Of a stretch of DNA of 32,777 bases, positions 5,674 to 32,777 are shown piece by piece. Within the stretch, counting starts at the first letter, position 1. The number at the start of each line of letters is the position of its first letter. Where the stretch lies: assembly GCA_016789655.1 (NCBI GenBank), contig JAEUQV010000099.1:1-32777 (forward strand), read 5' to 3'. The notes beneath the pieces were generated by a model. It saw only the letters and a list, made by a program, of their open reading frames with translations. It did not search any database and was not told the DNA's origin. This DNA is from Candidatus Saccharimonadota bacterium. Lineage in GTDB: Bacteria > Patescibacteriota > Saccharimonadia > Saccharimonadales > UBA4665. Position numbers and translations under genes: made by a program.

Positions 5674-6606
5674 TTACGATATAACTATAAGATTCGATCC
5701 GAACGGCACTGTAACGCTGGTATCTTTCAACTGTAAGCAAATTGCCTTAATGGAACTATCTATCTGGTCTTTTAGGCAATGGGCTTCGGGATCAATAATG
5801 CAAGTCTTTGCAAATATATCAGCTGCAGTGCCTGAACTAGCTACAACCGTTGCCATAAGTATGGAGGTGCTGGTTGGTTTACCGGTTCGAGGGTCTATTA
5901 TATGATGCCAACCCGAACCACTACGCCTAACTACACTTGATGATGCGATAGCCAGGACCTCGCCGATGTTATTCGATATAAGCCCCACCCGAGCGCCCCT
6001 CTGACGAGCTGCAGATATACCGATTCGCCATGGGTTATAATCTGCGTCAAACCCGTGACAGATTATATCGCCACCAAGTGAGATGTAGTATCTGCTAACA
6101 TTCATACGTTCGAGAAGGGCTGCGAGCGTATCGAGCATATAGCCTTTACCGATGCCTCCGATATCTATTGCGGTTTCTTCTGGGATGCGTGCACTAACTT
6201 CGGTGATTTCAATCTCATTTGAGCTAACCATGTGCCTTGACCGTACATCCAGAAGCGGATCGGCTTGCTCCACATGCGGCCAGGATCCCCGATAACCAGC
6301 GGCTTGCAAAGCTGGCAATACGAATGGGTTAAACAATCCTTCAGTTATATGAGCATATTTTTTACATACTGTGAGTAGTTCGGTAAAGTCAGCCGATATA
6401 CCAACCCACTGCCCAGCCTTTTCATTAAATTGTGATATTTCACTATCTGGTCTGAACCGACTAAAACGAATGTCAAACTCAGTTATAGTGTGCCAAACGC
6501 TATGAAAAACGTGTTCTATAGACTCGTAATCTGCGGCCACCAAGACTATATCAGCACGAGAGCCTAGCACATGTCTTTGTTGCCGAAATCTTTTTAATAC
6601 GCTCAT
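5674..6606 (-). CDS. apbE: FAD:protein FMN transferase (ApbE family)
   Basis: A 310-aa protein of normal family length. ApbE enzymes use FAD and Mg2+ to attach FMN covalently to a Thr/Ser in target flavoproteins. Visible family motifs: FSRFRPDSEISQFN (48-61), DIGGIGKGYMLD (148-159), SLGGD (176-180), HHIIDPRTGKP (234-244) and TAADIFAKT (260-268, carrying the Mg-binding Asp/Thr). Most characterised ApbE proteins are exported lipoproteins; this one has no signal peptide or lipobox, so a cytosolic site is inferred. The gene follows the ABC transporter by 48 bp on the same strand. It also has its own TACTAT box 8 nt before the ATG and no nearby Shine-Dalgarno sequence. No target flavoprotein is encoded in the window. 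Confidence 0.88.
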   Translation of the reverse strand: MSVLKRFRQQRHVLGSRADIVLVAADYESIEHVFHSVWHTITEFDIRFSRFRPDSEISQFNEKAGQWVGISADFTELLTVCKKYAHITEGLFNPFVLPALQAAGYRGSWPHVEQADPLLDVRSRHMVSSNEIEITEVSARIPEETAIDIGGIGKGYMLDTLAALLERMNVSRYYISLGGDIICHGFDADYNPWRIGISAARQRGARVGLISNNIGEVLAIASSSVVRRSGSGWHHIIDPRTGKPTSTSILMATVVASSGTAADIFAKTCIIDPEAHCLKDQIDSSIKAICLQLKDTSVTVPFGSNLIVIS

Positions 6607-6614
6607 GTTTATCT

Positions 6615-6620
6615 ATAGTA
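6615..6620 (-). promoter_or_regulatory. -10 box for apbE, leaderless geometry
   Basis: The minus strand reads TGG-TACTAT (extended -10), then 8 nt, then the apbE ATG. The only AAGGA is about 20 nt from the ATG, too far to act as a ribosome binding site. Confidence 0.4.
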
Positions 6621-6654
6621 CCATGTCCTTACGTTATGTAGTTCTGTGTTATGC

Positions 6655-8838
6655 CTAATGCAACTTTATAACCACTTCATCGATATCTCCCCAATCATCT
6701 TTACGATGAACGATTACGCCTGGCGCAGAATCTGAAGATGCATATATTTCTTCTGGAGTTTGTTGCAATGTAAATATTTGCGGACGTGCATCTGCTGAAC
6801 TAGTCGATTCTTTACTATCGTTATGGGGTGTCACATCGCGTGCTACAGGTTCAGCAGCATCTTGTAGTCCTGCTTGTGCCATATTTTCAGGGCGCACAAA
6901 CCATTTGTCTTCTTCAATCTGTCGCGCAATTTGTTGCTCGGTCAAGCCCTCGAGGAGTTTCAAGTAATGATCTAACCCTCCTAGTTCGTTTACATTGCGC
7001 AACACACCATTATCGAGAACGTATATCGTATCCATTAAGGCTAGCAGCGACTTTCTATGAGTAGCCATGAGAACTGTTTTGTTTTGTATAATTTGCATAA
7101 GAGAATCCCGAATATAGTTTTCACTTTTGGCGTCAAGTGCTGCTGTCGGTTCATCTAGGCACATTATTGGCGCATCTTTAATTAACGAACGTGCTATTGC
7201 AACTCGCTGCTTTTGTCCTCCGCTCAGTGAAGAGCCATTTTCACCCGCTGGGGAATTGACACCCATAGGCAGTTTGACAGTAAACTCAAGTACATTTGCC
7301 ACCTCTACTGCGTGCTTAACTTCATCTAAGTTAACCTGCCTGTAAATATCGCCATCATAAATATTCTCTAAGATACTTCCCGCAAATAACTGTGGCGCCT
7401 GACTGACCCACGCTACTTTTTGGCGTAGACCTTGTAGTGAAACAGACTGTATGTCGATGCCGTCTACCAAAATAGACCCGCTTTGAGGCTCAACAAATAA
7501 CGGTAGCAGCTTCAATAGGGTACTCTTCCCGCCCCCGCTTGGACCAATAATGCCGACCTTTTCCCCTTTATTGATATGCAGTGTTAGATTCTGAAAGACA
7601 GGCCGCCCTTGATATGAATAGCTCACATTTTGGAAATCAATCACCCCCTGGATGTTAGGAGGTACCTGCCGATCTTTTCTGAGGTCCTCTATACCTTCAT
7701 GGTCACTGAGCACATCGTAAACGCGTCCAACATCTATGATCTTCTGGTAACGTGTAGTTATCTTTCGTACCAAACTTTCGACAGGGTTTAAAAGATAGCC
7801 CATATACGTCATGAATACAAATAACTGTCCAAAAGTCATTTGATTGTTCATAGCGGCTGTGCCACCAAAATACATAACGATAGCCGTCGCCAAAACAACA
7901 AAGAACGTGTTTGTATAGCGAAGCAGGTTGCTCCACATCAAATTTCTCTGTGTTGCACGATAGCCGGCATGCCACAGATCATCTACCTTAAGTAGCAGCT
8001 TGTCTTCAAGCGTAAATGCTTGCACGGTTTCGGCGTTATCAACTGCTTCATTGATAGTACTGGCAGTTTTGCTGTTTATCTCAGTCAGCTGACGAGAGTA
8101 TTGGCCCATTTTAGGCCCGACAAACCGCATCGTAACATACAAAAGCGGCATAAGCACAATTGACACCAATGTTAAACTGACGCTAAAACTAGCCATAATG
8201 CCGAGTACACCAATAATCATAATGACCGAACTTATGATCGCGGCTGTCGAACCAAGTACTAGATCCGATAGGCTGTTTGTGACCACGTTTTGCCTATATA
8301 CATAATCACCTTTGGCCAATCGTTCTTGATGGTATAAGGGAAGATGTAAAATATGACGGAATGACTCGGCTTTTATTGAGCGGTTCAGCCAAAAACCTAT
8401 TTTAAGCAGCATAAAGTCGCTCATCCATGCAAAAGCCGATCCGAATATAAAAATCAACAATGTCAATCCCGAAGTAATTGCAATCAAAATAGGCTGATGA
8501 GTGTAGGCACTTAACGGTCCTGGGGCGGGGATTGTACCCAGCGCAGAATCAACCATAATTTTTGTAGGCCACGGCCTAAGCAATGTAAACACAGCCTGGC
8601 CCAACCCTAGTAGCACAACGATACCTACCGCCGGAAGTGCTCTTTTCTGGTATTTTTTTAGCCAAGTTTTGAAATCAGTCTTATTGGCATGCTGAGCATT
8701 TTTGGCTAGCCATTCATCTACCGCCTGATTTACCATCACTCTTGGCCAACCAACACTCCCGAGTACATCGGCAAGCATGCTAGGCGGAACGCCCGAAGCG
8801 ATCGCCATGGTAATAGCCTCGTTCAGTTTGGGTCTCAT
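6655..8838 (-). CDS. ABC exporter, fused transmembrane and ATP-binding domains, with extra N- and C-terminal regions
   Basis: A 727-aa half-transporter of the MsbA/lipid and multidrug exporter type. Membrane helices lie between about residues 68 and 350. The ATPase domain (about 400-625) has Walker A GPSGGGKST (432-440), Q-loop Q480, signature LSGGQ (538-542), Walker B with LDEP (561-564), D-loop ALD and the switch His594 (MATHR). All catalytic residues are intact, and it likely works as a homodimer. Unusual parts are an N-terminal helical region (1-48) with a GVPPSMLADVLGSVGWP motif and a polar, probably disordered C-terminal tail of about 95 residues ending in DEVVIKLH. The substrate cannot be read from sequence. 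A TATACT box lies at 8875-8880 upstream. apbE follows downstream. Confidence 0.88.
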   Translation of the reverse strand: MRPKLNEAITMAIASGVPPSMLADVLGSVGWPRVMVNQAVDEWLAKNAQHANKTDFKTWLKKYQKRALPAVGIVVLLGLGQAVFTLLRPWPTKIMVDSALGTIPAPGPLSAYTHQPILIAITSGLTLLIFIFGSAFAWMSDFMLLKIGFWLNRSIKAESFRHILHLPLYHQERLAKGDYVYRQNVVTNSLSDLVLGSTAAIISSVIMIIGVLGIMASFSVSLTLVSIVLMPLLYVTMRFVGPKMGQYSRQLTEINSKTASTINEAVDNAETVQAFTLEDKLLLKVDDLWHAGYRATQRNLMWSNLLRYTNTFFVVLATAIVMYFGGTAAMNNQMTFGQLFVFMTYMGYLLNPVESLVRKITTRYQKIIDVGRVYDVLSDHEGIEDLRKDRQVPPNIQGVIDFQNVSYSYQGRPVFQNLTLHINKGEKVGIIGPSGGGKSTLLKLLPLFVEPQSGSILVDGIDIQSVSLQGLRQKVAWVSQAPQLFAGSILENIYDGDIYRQVNLDEVKHAVEVANVLEFTVKLPMGVNSPAGENGSSLSGGQKQRVAIARSLIKDAPIMCLDEPTAALDAKSENYIRDSLMQIIQNKTVLMATHRKSLLALMDTIYVLDNGVLRNVNELGGLDHYLKLLEGLTEQQIARQIEEDKWFVRPENMAQAGLQDAAEPVARDVTPHNDSKESTSSADARPQIFTLQQTPEEIYASSDSAPGVIVHRKDDWGDIDEVVIKLH

Positions 8839-17141: not shown

Positions 17142-17219
17142 GTTAGAGGTAAGAGTTATGAGTTAGGAGTTAAGAGTTTGATTGCTCTTATCTCTTATCT
17201 TTTATCTCTTATCTCTCCT
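17142..17219. repeat. Inverted word-repeat cluster between rpsH and rplF, no gene inside
   Basis: The left half is built of AGTTA/AAGAG words and the right half is CTCTTATCTCTTATC plus variants. The two arms are imperfect inverted copies meeting at a perfect TAAGAG/CTCTTA hairpin with loop TTTGATTG (17171-17190). The right arm, read on the minus strand, shares AGATAAGAGATAAGAG with the repeat before rplX. Confidence 0.7.
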
Positions 17220-18504: not shown

Positions 18505-18857
18505 TACTTTATCTCCTTGCCAGAGCTTTTAAATACACGCGTCTTACTACCATCGTTGTTTAGCTTGTAGCCTATTCGGCTTGGTTTATTGGCAGTAGGA
18601 TCTACGATAGCAACCTTGCTTACCCAAATGGGTTTGGTTATTTCCAATATACCACCCTGTGGATGAGCCTTGTTAGGCTTTTGGTGCTTCTTAACGATGT
18701 TCACCCCTTCGACTGTAACTTTGTTATCTGCTGGGTGAGTAGCGACGACCTTGCCTTGCTTGCCCTTGTACTTGCCGGACAACACTTGGACTAAATCGCC
18801 CTTCTTCAATCTAATCTTCATTCTCTTATCTCTTATCTCTTGACTCTTGACTCTCAT
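18504..18857 (-). CDS. rplX: 50S ribosomal protein L24, probably with a repeat-encoded N-terminus
   Basis: The KOW-type core starts [21 protein letters not shown]24 is an assembly initiator on 23S rRNA. Two starts are possible. The ATG at 18857 directly follows the rplN stop and has GGAGG 8 nt upstream, giving 117 aa. The ATG at 18821 gives the usual length of 105 aa but has only weak purine-rich sequence before it. The 36 bp between them are word repeats that stay in frame and would encode [13 protein letters not shown] favour 18857 because of the ribosome binding site. Confidence 0.9.
18821..18857. repeat. Word repeat at the rplX start
   Basis: On the minus strand: GAGAGTCAAGAGTCAAGAG followed by ATAAGAGATAAGAGAATG. 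It shares GAGTCAAGAGAT with the start of the four-helix-bundle gene (31732 leftward) and AGATAAGAGATAAGAG with the rpsH-rplF cluster, linking three loci to one repeat family. Confidence 0.7.
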
Positions 18858-27069: not shown

Positions 27070-27085
27070 TTTTAATCCTCCGGAT

Positions 27086-27117
27086 TTAGTAGTTAGTAGT
27101 TAGTAGTTAGTAGTTAG
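27086..27117. repeat. 7-bp tandem repeat before rpsJ
   Basis: TTAGTAG repeated four times plus TTAG, with no mismatch. It lies just upstream of the rpsJ ribosome binding site, inside the predicted ~170-nt leader. Confidence 0.9.
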
Positions 27118-27243
27118 GATAAGCCCTTGGCTACGAACGACTGCAAACTGCCAGCTTAACCTAGCTTGGTACTGTAACATCTTGACGATTTATTGAGAAA
27201 ACCGGCACGACTTTTAGTCAGTACTCTTTTGTTTACGAGGCTA

Positions 27244-27786: not shown

Positions 27787-28971
27787 CTATTTGTCGATCT
27801 TGGTGACGACACCTGCACCGACGGTGCGGCCGCCTTCGCGGATAGCGAAGCGCAGACCCTGCTCCATAGCGATAGGAGCAAGTAGTTTTACCTTGAAGGT
27901 GACAGTATCGCCAGGCATGACCATTTCTTTATCGGCAGGTAGTTCAACCTCACCAGTTACGTCCGTAGTACGGAAGTAGAACTGAGGCTTGTATCCCTTA
28001 AAGAATGGTGTGTGACGACCACCTTCTTCCTTGCTCAGGATGTAGACTTCTGAGTCGAATTCAGTGTGAGGTGTGATTGTACCTGGCTTAGCCAAAACCT
28101 GGCCGCGCTCGATATCGTCACGCTCAATACCACGAAGCAATACGCCAGCATTGTCGCCAGCTTGACCCTGGTCGAGGCTCTTTTTGAAGGCTTCGATACC
28201 AGTTACAACACTCTTCTGAGTTGGGCGGATGCCGACGATTTCAACTTCGTCGTTGATCTTTACGACACCTTGCTCAATACGACCGGTAGCAACTGTGCCA
28301 CGACCCTTGATAGAAAAGACGTCTTCGATTGGCATGATGAATGGCTTGTCGAGATCACGAACTGGCTCTGGCAGATAGTCGTCCATAGCCTTAATGAGTT
28401 CCATGACTGCATCTTCGTTGGCAGCATCGCCTTCGACCGCCTTGGCAGCCGAACCCTTGACGATTGGGCAGTCACGGTCAAAGCCGTTCTTCTCAAGCAG
28501 ATCTCGGATTTCTTCTTCGACGAGTTCAACAAGGTCGGCATCGGCGAGGTCCATTTTGTTCATGAAAACTAGGATCTTTGGTACGCCAACCTGGCGGGCC
28601 AAAAGTACGTGTTCGCGAGTCTGAGGCATGGGGCCGTCAGCTGCAGATACCACGAGGATAGCGCCGTCAACTTGTGCGGCACCGGTAATCATGTTCTTGA
28701 CATAGTCAGCGTGTCCTGGCATGTCAACGTGTGCATAGTGGCGCTTTTCGCTTTCGTACTCTTGGTGAGAAGTGGCGATGGTTATACCACGAGCCTTCTC
28801 TTCTGGTGCATTATCGATCTGATCGTATGCAACTGGTTTGTTGGTGTCGCTTGGTAGTTTTTTAGCGAGAACTGCAGTAATTGCAGCAGTCAGCGTTGTC
28901 TTGCCGTGGTCGACGTGGCCCATAGTACCAACATTGACGTGAGGCTTTGAACGGTCAAAAGTTCCTGCCAT
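27787..28971 (-). CDS. tuf: Elongation factor Tu
   Basis: A 394-aa protein of full length; it delivers aminoacyl-tRNA to the ribosome. G1 GHVDHGKT (18-25), G2 RGITI (61-65), G3 DMPGH with catalytic His87 (83-87), G4 NKMD (138-141). In E. coli G3 is DCPGH and G4 is NKCD; both Cys are Met here. Domains 2 and 3 are complete, with [13 protein letters not shown] and [20 protein letters not shown]. It has its own promoter and terminator. The ribosome binding site lies in a perfect palindrome. Confidence 0.98.
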
Positions 28972-28974
28972 AGA

Positions 28975-28988
28975 AAGGAGTACTCCTT
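28975..28988 (-). promoter_or_regulatory. Shine-Dalgarno of tuf inside a palindrome
   Basis: AAGGAGTACTCCTT on both strands. The AAGGAG 11 nt before the ATG can pair with the following TCCTT (stem AAGGA/TCCTT, loop GTAC), hiding the ribosome binding site. Confidence 0.5.
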
Positions 28989-29079
28989 GATTAATTGTTT
29001 AATTGATGTGAATAGTTGTTCACGCGGTCCATATTGCTTGGTCTACCAAAACAACGCCCTCACGCGAGATACGCTGTTA

Positions 29080-29108
29080 AGTATAGGCAACCGTTACGTA
29101 TTTGTAAA
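29080..29108 (-). promoter_or_regulatory. Promoter of tuf
   Basis: Minus strand: TTTACA (29108-29103), 17-bp spacer, TATACT (29085-29080). Predicted start about 29073, leader about 100 nt. So tuf is transcribed independently of fusA, at least in part. Confidence 0.75.
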
Positions 29109-29207
29109 GTGTTTGTTCACCTTCATCGAACATGTATTCCAACATTCGACAATGTCTATTTGCATGGGCTATTCGTTAGCGTATTAGTGCAAAGTGATTG
29201 AAATAAC

Positions 29208-31295
29208 CTACTTACTGTTCTTGGCGATGATGGCGTCGGCGACATTGTTTGGAACGACGGCGTAATGGTCAAGTTCCATGGAGCTACTGGCACGACCCTG
29301 GCTCATAGAGCGCAGGTTGGTCGTGTAGCCAAACATCTCACCAAGTGGAACGAACGCTGTTATTTCCTTGATCCCGGATGAAAGATCTTCCATGGACTCG
29401 ATGCGACCGCGCTTACTGTTGAGGTCACCGATGACGTCACCCATGAATTCTTCTGGGGTCACGACGACAACTTTCATGACAGGCTCAAGCAGAACCGGTC
29501 CAGCCTTCTTGAAGCCATCCTGGAAGCCCATAGAGCCTGCGATACTAAACGCCATTTCGTTGGAGTCAACTTCGTGGTAGCTACCATCGTACAGTTCGAC
29601 CTTTACGTCCACTACTGGGTAGCCAGCGATAACACCATTTGACATTGCCTCTTCGATGCCTTTGCGGACAGCTGGGATGTACTCTGATGGTACTACACCG
29701 CCCTTAATAGAGTTGATAAACTCAAACCCAGCACCAGCTTCATTTTGACTGAGGCGCAACCAGACGTCACCGTACTGACCACGGCCACCTGACTGGCGGA
29801 CAAACTTGCCCTGGGCTTCGATGGCATCTTTTCTGATGGTTTCGCGGTACGCAACCTGTGGTTGACCTATATTTGCTTCGACGTTGAATTCACGCTTCAT
29901 GCGGTCTACCAGGATTTCAAGGTGCAACTCACCCATACCAGAGATAATCGTCTGACCAGTTTCGTCATCCACGCGGACACGAAATGTTGGATCTTCTTCA
30001 GCCAAGCGTTGCAGCGCCAAGCTCATCTTTTCTTGGTCGGCTTTTGTCTTTGGTTCGATAGCGATTGAAACTGGCGGCTCTGGGAACGTAATATTCTCGA
30101 GCACGATTGGGTTTGCAGGGTCACAGAGTGTATTACCGGTCGTGGTCCCCTTGAGACCGACGATAGCAGCGATATCACCAGCTACCACTTCAGTTACATC
30201 TTCACGCTTATCGGCCTGCATACGTACGATACGACCGACACGCTCTTTTTCACCGGTCGAGCTATTGAGCACATAGGAACCAGCCTGCAATTTCCCGGAA
30301 TAAACGCGGAAATAAGCAAGCTTACCTACAAATGGGTCAGTTGTGATTTTAAATGCTAAACCAGAAAGTGGCTCGGTTTCGCTGTGCTTGCGCTCTATTT
30401 CATCGCCGGATTTCGGATGTACACCCCAAGTGTTGCTGCGGTCGTCTGGCGCTGGCAGATAATCATTGACCATATCGAGGACCTTTTCAACGATCACGCC
30501 GCGGCCATCACCACCAGTTACCGCGTAGAATTTGCCGGTCAAAACAGCAGTACGGATTGCTTGCTTGATTTCATCTTCGCTGAGCCCTTCTTCACCAACC
30601 TCGAAGTATTTTTCGAGCATAGCTTCATCTTCGGCTACAGCGTTTTCGACAAGCAGACTCCGGTACTTCTTCACCTGATCCATCATATCGGCAGGGATTT
30701 CGCCCTCAATCAGCTCGTGATCATGGAATTCTTTGTAGGTGTACGCCTTCATGGAAACCAGGTCGACAACACCATTGATTGCTTGCTCGAAGCCGATCGG
30801 CAGATGGACTGGGAAGGCCCGCTTGCTCAGGCGATTGTGGATGCTCTCAAGGCTCTTATAGAAATCGCCACCGGTCTGGTTGATTTTATTTATGAAACAT
30901 ATACGAGGCACACCGTATTTGTCGGCCTGACGCCACACGGTCTCGGACTGGCTCTCTACGCCCATCTTGCCATCGAATACCACGCAAGCGCCATCGAGCA
31001 CACGGAGACTGCGCTCCACCTCAGCGGTGAAATCGATGTGGCCTGGTGTATCGATGATGTTGATCTGTTTGCCTTTCCAGAAACACGTCACAGCGGCAGA
31101 GACGATGGTAATACCACGTTCACGCTCCTGCGCCATCCAGTCGGTAGTCGTCTCACCTTCGTGAACCGCACCGATCTTATGCTTTAGGCCGGTACGGTAC
31201 AAAATACCTTCGGTCGTCGTTGTCTTACCCGCGTCAATATGAGCGATGATGCCCATATTGCGGATGTTCTTCATTTCTACTTTCTTATCTGCCAT
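29208..31295 (-). CDS. fusA: Elongation factor G
   Basis: A 695-aa protein of full length; a GTPase for translocation and, with RRF, ribosome recycling. G1 AHIDAGKT (18-25), the switch I sequence ERGITIVSAA, G3 DTPGHIDF, G4 NKIN in place of the usual NKMD, and domain IV GRGQYGDVWLRLS with GGVVPSEYIPAV; domain V ends the protein. GGGAG lies about 5 nt before the ATG. It is separated from rpsG by the four-helix-bundle cassette. No terminator was found between fusA and tuf. Confidence 0.97.
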   Translation of the reverse strand: MADKKVEMKNIRNMGIIAHIDAGKTTTTEGILYRTGLKHKIGAVHEGETTTDWMAQERERGITIVSAAVTCFWKGKQINIIDTPGHIDFTAEVERSLRVLDGACVVFDGKMGVESQSETVWRQADKYGVPRICFINKINQTGGDFYKSLESIHNRLSKRAFPVHLPIGFEQAINGVVDLVSMKAYTYKEFHDHELIEGEIPADMMDQVKKYRSLLVENAVAEDEAMLEKYFEVGEEGLSEDEIKQAIRTAVLTGKFYAVTGGDGRGVIVEKVLDMVNDYLPAPDDRSNTWGVHPKSGDEIERKHSETEPLSGLAFKITTDPFVGKLAYFRVYSGKLQAGSYVLNSSTGEKERVGRIVRMQADKREDVTEVVAGDIAAIVGLKGTTTGNTLCDPANPIVLENITFPEPPVSIAIEPKTKADQEKMSLALQRLAEEDPTFRVRVDDETGQTIISGMGELHLEILVDRMKREFNVEANIGQPQVAYRETIRKDAIEAQGKFVRQSGGRGQYGDVWLRLSQNEAGAGFEFINSIKGGVVPSEYIPAVRKGIEEAMSNGVIAGYPVVDVKVELYDGSYHEVDSNEMAFSIAGSMGFQDGFKKAGPVLLEPVMKVVVVTPEEFMGDVIGDLNSKRGRIESMEDLSSGIKEITAFVPLGEMFGYTTNLRSMSQGRASSSMELDHYAVVPNNVADAIIAKNSK

Positions 31296-31318
31296 TGTCG
31301 CTCCCTCTTTGTCGCTCT

Positions 31319-31752
31319 AGAGTCATGAGACATGAGTCATGAGACATGAGTTTATTCGTTAGTCTTGTTAATTAATCCTGTTAGTATCTTGTGACATTCA
31401 ACTGATCTAGCCTCAAGCTCCGTATATGAGAGACCCGGCAAGAAGTTGACGTCTTTGGCAATGAGCAACTGCGCCTGAACTTCATGCAAAGACGCTCGTG
31501 CCATATCGTAAAAGTGAGCTCTATCGGCTTTGGTACGTCGACCAAAGCCTTCGGCAATGTTCGAACTTACAGAGACAGCTGCTCTGCGGATTTGGTTTGT
31601 AAGACCGAATTGTTCGTTTTTAGGAAAATCTTCTGTTGCTTTGTAAATGTTCACAGCGAGCCGATGAGCCTTCTGCCAAGCAACCAGGTCTTTGAAATCT
31701 GTGATTTTAGGATTTGAGATCTCTTGACTCATGTCTCTTGTCTCATGACTCT
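31319..31752. mobile_element. Putative miniature cassette: inverted word repeats around a four-helix-bundle gene
   Basis: AGAGTCATGAGACA occurs at the left outer end (31319-31332) and in exact inverted orientation at the right outer end (31752-31739). The left arm continues as a 14-bp tandem unit GAGTCATGAGACAT (31320-31347, two copies); the right arm as related GAGACATGAGTCAAGAG. The gene fills the space exactly: its stop abuts the left arm and its start codon lies in the right arm. CGCTC flanks both sides (31313-31317, 31753-31757), a possible 5-bp target duplication with a one-base offset. No transposase is present. Confidence 0.6.
31352..31732 (-). CDS. Four-helix-bundle protein (23S rRNA intervening-sequence protein family)
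   Basis: A 126-aa protein. The hallmark sequence FPKNEQFGLTNQIRRAAVSV followed by SSNIAEGFGR identifies the TIGR02436-type family, first described from intervening sequences within 23S rRNA genes; its biochemical role is unsettled. FKDLVAWQKAHRLAVNIY forms helix 1. The start codon is made from the repeat (ATGAGTCAAGAG encodes MSQE), so the N-terminus is repeat-derived and there is no proper Shine-Dalgarno sequence. The gene interrupts the conserved rpsG-fusA junction and lies within inverted repeats. The host operon would transcribe it. Confidence 0.85.
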   Translation of the reverse strand: MSQEISNPKITDFKDLVAWQKAHRLAVNIYKATEDFPKNEQFGLTNQIRRAAVSVSSNIAEGFGRRTKADRAHFYDMARASLHEVQAQLLIAKDVNFLPGLSYTELEARSVECHKILTGLINKTNE

Positions 31753-31770
31753 CGCTCGCATTAGCGAGCG
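31753..31770 (-). other. Hairpin just after the rpsG stop codon
   Basis: CGCTCGC-ATTA-GCGAGCG, a perfect 7-bp stem 1 bp past the rpsG stop, with no T-run. It abuts the cassette edge and could be an mRNA-end stabiliser or an insertion target. Confidence 0.6.
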
Positions 31771-31771
31771 C

Positions 31772-32251
31772 TTAGCCGCGTGCGAAGTGTGCGAATGCAC
31801 GGTTTGCTTCTGCCATGCGGTGCGTGTCTTCGCGCTTCTTCACGGCAGCGCCCTGGTTGTTGTAGGCATCCATGAGTTCGGCTGCTATACGATCGGCCAT
31901 GCTCATACCCTTACGTGAGCGAGCTGCTGCCACGAACCACATAGTGGTAAGGTGGCTCTGGCGCTGACCTTTGACTTCAAAAGGAATCTGGTAGTTAGCA
32001 CCACCGACACGGCGAGAACGAGTCTCAACGTTGGGGCGAATATTGCCAAAAGCCTGATCGAATACTTCAAGTGGGTTATCGACTTTCAATTTATTGGCTG
32101 CAGTTTGCATACCAGTGTACACAAGTCGCTCGGCGACTTGCTTTTTGCCATCGCGCATAACGCGATTTATGAGGCGCTGCACAGGAACGCTATTGTACAT
32201 ACGATCTGCGGGGATGTCCCGGACGAGTGAGGCGGTAACTTTGCGTGGCAT
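31772..32251 (-). CDS. rpsG: 30S ribosomal protein S7
   Basis: A 159-aa protein, usual length. S7 nucleates the 30S head and in E. coli represses the str operon. Motifs: PVQRLINRVMRDGKKQVAER, NIRPNVETRSRRVGGANYQI and AELMDAYNNQGAAVKKRED. The start overlaps the rpsL stop by one base (TAATG). Confidence 0.97.
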   Translation of the reverse strand: MPRKVTASLVRDIPADRMYNSVPVQRLINRVMRDGKKQVAERLVYTGMQTAANKLKVDNPLEVFDQAFGNIRPNVETRSRRVGGANYQIPFEVKGQRQSHLTTMWFVAAARSRKGMSMADRIAAELMDAYNNQGAAVKKREDTHRMAEANRAFAHFARG

Positions 32252-32664
32252 TATTTGCTCTCCTTCTTGGCGCCGTATTTACTGCGACCCTGCTTACGGT
32301 TCTGTACACCCTGAAGGTCAAGCGCACCACGTACGATGTGGTATCGCACACCAGGAAGGTCCTTTACGCGACCACCACGCACCATAACAACAGCGTGCTC
32401 CTGGAGATTATGACCTTCACCACCAATGTAAGCCCAAACTTCATAGCCATTACCTAAGCGCACGCGCGCGACTTTTCGCAGAGCTGAGTTAGGTTTCTTT
32501 GGTGTTTTGGTCGTGACCTTCACGCATACACCACGCTTAAATGGTGCGGTTTTCTCGTAACTCTTGGTTTTGAGGTTGTTTACTACGCGCTGTAACGCAG
32601 GCGACTTACTCTTAGTCGTAACTTTGGTGCGTGGTTTGCGTACCAATTGATTAATAGTAGGCAA
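32251..32664 (-). CDS. rpsL: 30S ribosomal protein S12
   Basis: A 137-aa protein, usual length, at the decoding centre. Motifs: [32 protein letters not shown] (with the Lys linked to streptomycin response in other bacteria), [20 protein letters not shown] and [12 protein letters not shown]. The start codon is TTG at 32664, with AAAGGG about 6 nt upstream; no ATG fits. It is the first gene of the str-type operon. Confidence 0.97.
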
Positions 32665-32777
32665 AGTATGCCCTTTCTGAGGCTATTGCCTCACTTACAT
32701 TCGTCTCGAAGAGAATCATCTCCTCTACCGCCATGAATCAGGTGTAACTGAAACGGCTCGAAATTGATATAACATTG
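32665..32777 (-). promoter_or_regulatory. Leader of the str-type operon
   Basis: A small hairpin GAGGC-TATT-GCCTC (32679-32692) sits directly before the rpsL ribosome binding site. A possible extended -10 (TGTTATAT) lies at the window edge near 32767-32775; its -35 would be outside. Confidence 0.35.

What the first reader, a model, noticed from the sequence alone, without database searches (positions are those of the whole stretch)
31319..31752. Miniature inverted-repeat cassette carrying a four-helix-bundle gene between rpsG and fusA
A 434-bp unit has exact 14-bp terminal inverted repeats (AGAGTCATGAGACA), internal 14-bp tandem units, a possible CGCTC flanking duplication, and a single gene whose start codon is built from the repeat. 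It sits in one of the most conserved gene junctions in bacteria. Proteins of this family are known from 23S rRNA intervening sequences, but no mechanism of mobility is established. The layout suggests a tiny element moved in trans, or one whose own protein takes part.
Basis: partly seen in the sequence, partly recalled or inferred. Interest (0 to 1): 0.7.

Follow-up and report, generated by a model that had tools for sequence, protein, structure and literature searches.

The report
Mobile gene with heptamer inverted arms
A tiny mobile DNA element, one small four-helix-bundle gene between two inverted arms made of 7-base repeats, has jumped into a core ribosome operon of a Patescibacteria genome, and genomes rich in this gene family also carry the mysterious 7-base repeat arrays that genomes without it lack.

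Summary
In detail: 434 bp, exact 14-bp ends, 32-nt arms (88% complementary), one PF05635 gene. The true unit is 7 bp (GAGWCAW), not 14. The same design recurs widely. 59/79 relatives of the gene in several phyla, 26/30 further Patescibacteria loci and 6/8 cyanobacterial plasmid genes have inverted arms; control ORFs 37/574. The arm sequence differs per element, the period stays 7 (sometimes 8). Arms plus gene move as a unit: two copies in one MAG are 99.3% identical over 426 bp, ending at the right arm's outer edge, with unrelated flanks; relatives have near-empty junctions (5 and 10 bp) and decayed relics. The same heptamers also form gene-less hairpins. Period-7 arrays away from the gene: 18.6 per 100 kb in 20 gene-rich genomes, 0.3 in 20 gene-free ones. 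Proteins and heptamers co-vary (Mantel 0.46). Best reading: an intergenic relative of 23S rRNA intervening sequences, mobile as a unit, whose protein helps spread its own heptamer arms using host enzymes. Mobility is well supported; the protein's causal role is inferred. The claimed CGCTC duplication is not significant. No transposase, reverse transcriptase or intron was found.

The parts
31319..31752 (.). whole element (arm + four-helix-bundle gene + arm)
   Evidence: boundaries by analogy with the 99.3% identical copies in L056
31319..31351 (.). 3' arm of the element (left in the window): heptamer array GAGTCAT GAGACAT GAGTCAT GAGACAT GAG
   Evidence: period-7 array; pairs with the other arm
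31721..31752 (.). 5' arm of the element (right in the window): inverted heptamer array CTC TTGACTC ATGTCTC TTGTCTC ATGACTC; contains the gene's start codon
31352..31732 (-). four-helix-bundle protein gene, 126 aa (PF05635 / TIGR02436; IVP/S23 family)
   Evidence: AlphaFold2 pLDDT 95.8, four helices, best PDB match 2gsc TM 0.87
31753..31771 (.). short GC hairpin (GCGCTCGC-TAAT-GCGAGCG on the - strand) between rpsG stop and the arm
   Evidence: sequence and RNA fold
29208..31295 (-). fusA (downstream host gene, co-oriented)
31772..32251 (-). rpsG (upstream host gene, co-oriented)
17142..17219 (.). gene-less inverted pair of heptamer arrays (GAGTTAA type) with a 2-nt loop: probable non-autonomous relative
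18821..18855 (.). single heptamer array TTATCTC/TTGACTC, same motif family as the element's arm
27081..27121 (.). single heptamer array (GTTAGTA)

Best explanation
The 434-bp unit is a small mobile element: one four-helix-bundle (IVP/S23-type) gene bounded by inverted arms of degenerate 7-bp repeats, inserted in sense orientation between rpsG and fusA. It is one of a large dispersed class with a different heptamer per element. SHOWN: arms and gene form one unit; the unit appears at new sites, leaves near-empty junctions or relics in relatives, and shares its heptamer with many gene-less hairpins in the same genome; heptamer arrays are abundant only in genomes that carry the gene family. INFERRED: the protein, which has no recognisable nuclease or transposase, acts as an Avd-like nucleic-acid scaffold on its own arm sequence (paired as a hairpin in RNA or single-stranded DNA) and lets host repair or replication enzymes copy the hairpin into new intergenic sites. 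Slippage or templated copying in 7-nt steps then lengthens the arms. Gene-less hairpins are deletion derivatives or products made in trans, as MITEs are for a transposon. In the mRNA the paired arms fold the insert out, as in rRNA intervening sequences, which may explain why insertion into essential operons is tolerated.
For: Architecture: inverted arms at 59/79 4HB genes versus 37/574 control ORFs, 26/30 new loci, 6/8 cyanobacterial plasmid genes, the other two with direct arrays; period 7 dominates. Unit: L056 copies 99.3% identical over 426 bp up to the outer end of the right arm, unrelated flanks. Sites: absent from rpsG-fusA in 27 relatives; 5-bp gap in G038 and relic in G059; atpG-atpD intact in G062, 10 bp in G000, relic in G059; replacement inside an older arm, L155. 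Copy number in the genus varies from 0 to about 7. Gene-less hairpins with the same heptamer. Density 18.6 versus 0.3 arrays per 100 kb, p=2.7e-5, not seen for other periods; the genus agrees, rho 0.79. Protein-heptamer Mantel rho 0.46, 0/500 permutations, non-orthologous sites. RNA arms pair, z=-4.6. Avd-like fold TM 0.74. Sense orientation between co-oriented genes 68/81 versus 314/540.
Against: No catalytic domain in the protein, and no reverse transcriptase found in the own genome, so the moving enzyme is unknown. No target-site duplication could be shown. Only one case of nearly identical dispersed copies was found, on one contig of a MAG. The gene-array association is a correlation; the 20+20 genomes were not phylogenetically matched (the 7-genome genus comparison partly controls for this). 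Some heptamer types in the own genome have no matching 4HB gene. Many Flavobacteriaceae elements are plainly vertical.
Confidence: 0.55

Rival explanations
1. Passenger: heptamer hairpins are an independent repeat family moved or expanded by an unknown host or mobile enzyme; 4HB genes merely ride between two arms and play no part.
For: The protein lacks catalytic domains; gene-less hairpins outnumber gene-bearing ones; an unrelated cargo, the PD-(D/E)XK GxxExxY gene, also has inverted short-repeat arms in 19/26 loci.
Against: Heptamer arrays are nearly absent where the family is absent; arms co-vary with the protein; GxxExxY arms have a different motif and no clear period 7, so cargo and arm type go together.
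Confidence: 0.2
2. RNA insulation: the arms are selected because they pair in the polycistronic mRNA and are cut by RNase III, as in 23S rRNA intervening sequences; heptamer arrays arise by slippage and the gene moves by ordinary recombination.
For: The arms form the closing stem of the folded transcript, z -4.6; same anatomy as the Coxiella IVS, 428-444 nt with 28-bp terminal repeats cut by RNase III (PMC4990558); sense orientation.
Against: Does not explain gene-less hairpins by the dozen elsewhere, arrays inside coding sequences, or the genome-wide restriction to 4HB-bearing genomes. It may be true in addition.
Confidence: 0.15
3. Regulator: the 4HB protein is a domesticated RNA- or DNA-binding regulator and the heptamer arrays are its operator sites spread by selection.
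For: Arrays lie mostly in intergenic gaps (78/105 versus 12% of sequence) and the arms reach the start codon in 26/76 elements.
Against: Several heptamer types and several 4HB paralogues per genome, patchy and relic-ridden distribution in one genus, identical dispersed copies.
Confidence: 0.07
4. Ordinary vertically inherited gene with chance or low-complexity flanks.
For: Flavobacteriaceae elements are syntenic.
Against: Shuffle, control-ORF and relative comparisons.
Confidence: 0.03

Closest known systems
23S rRNA intervening sequences (IVS) with S23/IVP gene (e.g. Coxiella burnetii, PMC4990558)
   Same: Same protein family, same size (428-444 versus 434 nt), terminal inverted repeats closing a stem, no transposase, sporadic distribution
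   Different: Here in the gap between two protein-coding genes; arms are heptamer arrays whose sequence differs per element; gene-less copies; RNase III excision untested
Heptameric repeat arrays: TAACTGA (PMC4679880), GGGAATC/GGGGAYT (PMC4692102), cyanobacterial STRR
   Same: 7-bp degenerate tandem units, intergenic, near start and stop codons; 70-75 inverted pairs reported per Xanthomonas genome
   Different: A linked gene family is not mentioned in the passages read of these two papers; here the arrays are the arms of 4HB elements and track that gene family
MITE / autonomous transposon pairs and REP / RAYT
   Same: A gene-bearing copy and many short gene-less copies sharing the ends
   Different: No DDE or Y1 transposase; the protein is a non-catalytic four-helix bundle; ends are arrays, not fixed sequences
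DGR accessory protein Avd (PDB 4dwl, 8ub7)
   Same: Same fold (TM 0.74), weak sequence similarity (bAvd E=4.7e-7)
   Different: No reverse transcriptase in the own genome

Membership tests
IVP/S23 four-helix-bundle family (PF05635, TIGR02436) | profile match above curated cut-off | tested here: met
   128.7 bits versus 33.8; 123.4 versus 24
IVP/S23 four-helix-bundle family (PF05635, TIGR02436) | four-helix-bundle fold like 2gsc/2rld | tested here: met
   model pLDDT 95.8, TM 0.87 to 2gsc
23S rRNA intervening sequence | located inside an rRNA gene | tested here: not met
   between rpsG and fusA; no Rfam match in 28000-32777
23S rRNA intervening sequence | complementary ends that close a stem around the ORF | tested here: met
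   32-nt arms, RNA fold z -4.6
23S rRNA intervening sequence | excision by RNase III | not testable with these tools
   needs RNA work
Insertion sequence / MITE | terminal inverted repeats | tested here: met
   14 bp exact, 32 nt at 88%
Insertion sequence / MITE | target-site duplication | tested here: inconclusive
   CGCTC occurs 61 times in the window; junctions too diverged
Insertion sequence / MITE | encoded transposase (autonomous copy) | tested here: not met
   single ORF, PF05635 only
Diversity-generating retroelement | reverse transcriptase | tested here: not met
   PF00078 absent in G000 (93% complete); one RT in G062 only
Group I/II intron | catalytic RNA structure | tested here: not met
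   no Rfam match at gathering threshold
Bacterial heptamer repeat arrays (STRR/TAACTGA/GGGAATC kind) | tandem degenerate 7-bp units, mainly intergenic | tested here: met

The most novel reading that the evidence does not exclude
Four-helix-bundle IVP proteins drive a widespread class of mobile hairpin elements without a transposase, each copying its own degenerate heptamer arms, and the long-unexplained heptamer repeat families of Patescibacteria, cyanobacteria, Xanthomonas and Bacteroidota are their arms and gene-less offspring.
Probability: 0.4. Interest if true: 0.92.

Novelty: new variant of a known kind. Interest (0 to 1): 0.78.

Why it matters
Two old puzzles meet. Intervening-sequence (S23/IVP) genes have been suspected of mobility without a mechanism, and heptamer repeat arrays in bacterial genomes have had no known origin. 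The data here tie the two together: the gene sits between heptamer arms, arms and gene move as a unit, and heptamer arrays are abundant only where the gene family is. That gives both questions a direct test (delete or add one 120-codon gene and watch the arrays), and suggests a mobile element type whose only protein is a non-catalytic scaffold.

Tried and rejected
Target-site duplication: CGCTC is common, and the L056 copies and genus junctions show none. Reverse-transcriptase dependence: none found in the own genome. Intron or known RNA: no Rfam match. Viral carriage: no relative confirmed in IMG/VR contigs, none in phage records. Fixed 14-bp TIR family: rejected, every element has its own heptamer. 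Concerted evolution of the two arms in orthologous pnp-UDG elements: within-genome and between-genome arm scores were similar for L005/L150, so not shown. Two further literature searches found no paper linking the gene family to heptamer repeats.

Full report
OBSERVATION. The outer 14 bp are exact inverted copies, the arms extend to 32 nt at 88% complementarity, and the inverted score (25) exceeds all 2,868 same-geometry placements in the window (max 16). The single gene (31352-31732, minus strand, 126 aa) is a PF05635/TIGR02436 four-helix-bundle (4HB) protein; an AlphaFold2 model (pLDDT 95.8) matches 2gsc (XCC0516) at TM 0.87 and the DGR protein Avd at 0.74. Its ATG lies inside the arm. The repeat unit is a degenerate 7-mer, GAGWCAW, not a 14-mer. 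The CGCTC 'duplication' is a common 5-mer and not significant.

NOT VERTICAL AT THIS SITE. In the 27 family relatives where rpsG and fusA are adjacent and readable, none has a 4HB gene there. Within the genus (7 genomes), G038 has a 5-bp gap, four have unrelated small ORFs, and G059 has a relic: SVECHKTVTGLINKTN against SVECHKILTGLINKTN of the window protein, score 76 versus a shuffle maximum of 37. A second site behaves alike: between atpG and atpD, G062 has an intact element, the window genome has 10 bp, and G059 has a decayed 4HB (score 85 versus 42) still bounded by inverted arms. 4HB matches per genus genome are 8, 5, 3, 1, 0, 0, 0, the 8 and the 3 including split genes.

ARMS AND GENE ARE ONE UNIT. 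In L056 (a Patescibacteria MAG) two copies at different pilin-gene junctions are 99.3% identical over 426 bp. Identity stops at the outer end of the right arm, the left arm differs by 14 bp (two heptamers), and the flanks are unrelated. In G062 at pnp-UDG a diverged 4HB (54% identity to the G000 protein, against 72% for G054) with new CAGATGW-type arms lies inside a remnant of the older GATCAAT-type right arm seen in G000 and G054.

THE DESIGN IS GENERAL. Among GTDB loci found with the window protein, 59/79 4HB genes have inverted flanks above all shuffles, against 37/574 control ORFs in the same loci. Period 7 dominates (42/76 upstream and 36/76 downstream strong, 10/600 random segments); some Flavobacteriaceae show 8. 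A second set of Patescibacteria loci gives 26/30. Cyanobacterial plasmid 4HB genes (Nostoc, Calothrix, Anabaena and others) have inverted heptamer (once octamer) arms in 6/8, and direct arrays in the other two; some sit inside CRISPR operons, cas10-cmr3 and cas6-cas4. Elements lie in sense between co-oriented genes (68/81 versus 314/540).

GENE-LESS RELATIVES. The arm heptamer of L056 recurs at about 40 more sites in that genome, many as inverted pairs with 16-140 bp between them and the same polarity as the 4HB arms; a few single arrays lie inside coding sequences. The window genome shows the same for GAGWCAW, and the window itself has a gene-less inverted pair at 17142-17219.

GENE FAMILY AND ARRAYS GO TOGETHER. 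In 20-kb samples, period-7 arrays away from 4HB genes number 1 in 319 kb for 20 genomes without PF05635 and 54 in 290 kb for 20 genomes with 8-13 matches (0.3 versus 18.6 per 100 kb; p=2.7e-5; mean GC 0.42 and 0.43; other periods not raised). In the genus the rank correlation is 0.79 over seven genomes. Among 55 Patescibacteria elements at non-orthologous sites, protein distance predicts heptamer distance (rho 0.46, unchanged after GC correction, 0/500 permutations). Shared host ancestry may contribute to both results.

MECHANISM. Shown: unit mobility, arms as ends, non-autonomous offspring, gene-array association. Inferred: the protein acts on its own arms. It has no catalytic domain, and no reverse transcriptase is found in the genome, so host enzymes must do the chemistry. 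The constant 7-bp period with changing sequence suggests a fixed step in copying or binding rather than a conserved sequence. The transcript folds with the arms as closing stem (z -4.6), as in rRNA intervening sequences, whose excision by RNase III is established (PMC4990558); that may protect the invaded operon.

KNOWN CONTEXT. The closest known element is the 23S rRNA IVS; the location criterion is not met, so this is filed as a variant, not a member. CPR rRNA insertions can encode the same protein (PMC11270868). Heptamer families described in Beggiatoaceae, cyanobacteria, Bacteroidetes, Xanthomonas and Nostoc have no assigned origin (PMC4679880, PMC4692102); Xanthomonas campestris does encode a 4HB protein (2gsc). 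I found no paper in the held library linking the two, but many subscription journals are not held.

LIMITS. One clear case of recent multiplication; MAG data; no target duplication; unmatched phylogeny in the 20+20 comparison; intermediate-copy genomes not sampled.

Noticed in passing
L069:6519-6950; L197-L226: GxxExxY (TIGR04256, PD-(D/E)XK) genes have inverted arms of ACGAA/ACTAA/ACAGAT/ACGCTGA-type short repeats in 19/26 testable Patescibacteria loci: a second, unrelated cargo with the same cassette design.
   Followed up: partly
L085:699-1274 and L079:7991-8584: PaaX/Cas2-like genes flanked by palindromic repeats (e.g. ATTCCACAAAAAATAAGCTATAGCTTATTTTTTGTGGAAT on both sides).
   Followed up: no
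rpsG-fusA junction, L119-L147 and L158-L172: The rpsG-fusA gap in this family often holds a small, fast-evolving, apparently lineage-specific ORF of about 80-130 codons, different in almost every genome.
   Followed up: no
L056:5351-5953, 6344-6901, 7299-7892: The element's right arm is read through as the N-terminal leader of the next pilin-like protein (MKIRNTKYEIRNTN... before GFTILE), so insertion rewrote the leader peptide.
   Followed up: no
G347 loci L265, L267, L269: Heptamer arrays ATACGAA lie inside what look like coding sequences (murD-like and ksgA-like by eye).
   Followed up: no
L004 (G000:C110:23869-24179): A frame-broken 4HB gene next to about 20 tandem copies of GTAGACT: a decaying element with one greatly expanded arm.
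   Followed up: no
window 17142-17219: Gene-less heptamer hairpin (GAGTTAA type) with a 2-nt loop.
   Followed up: partly
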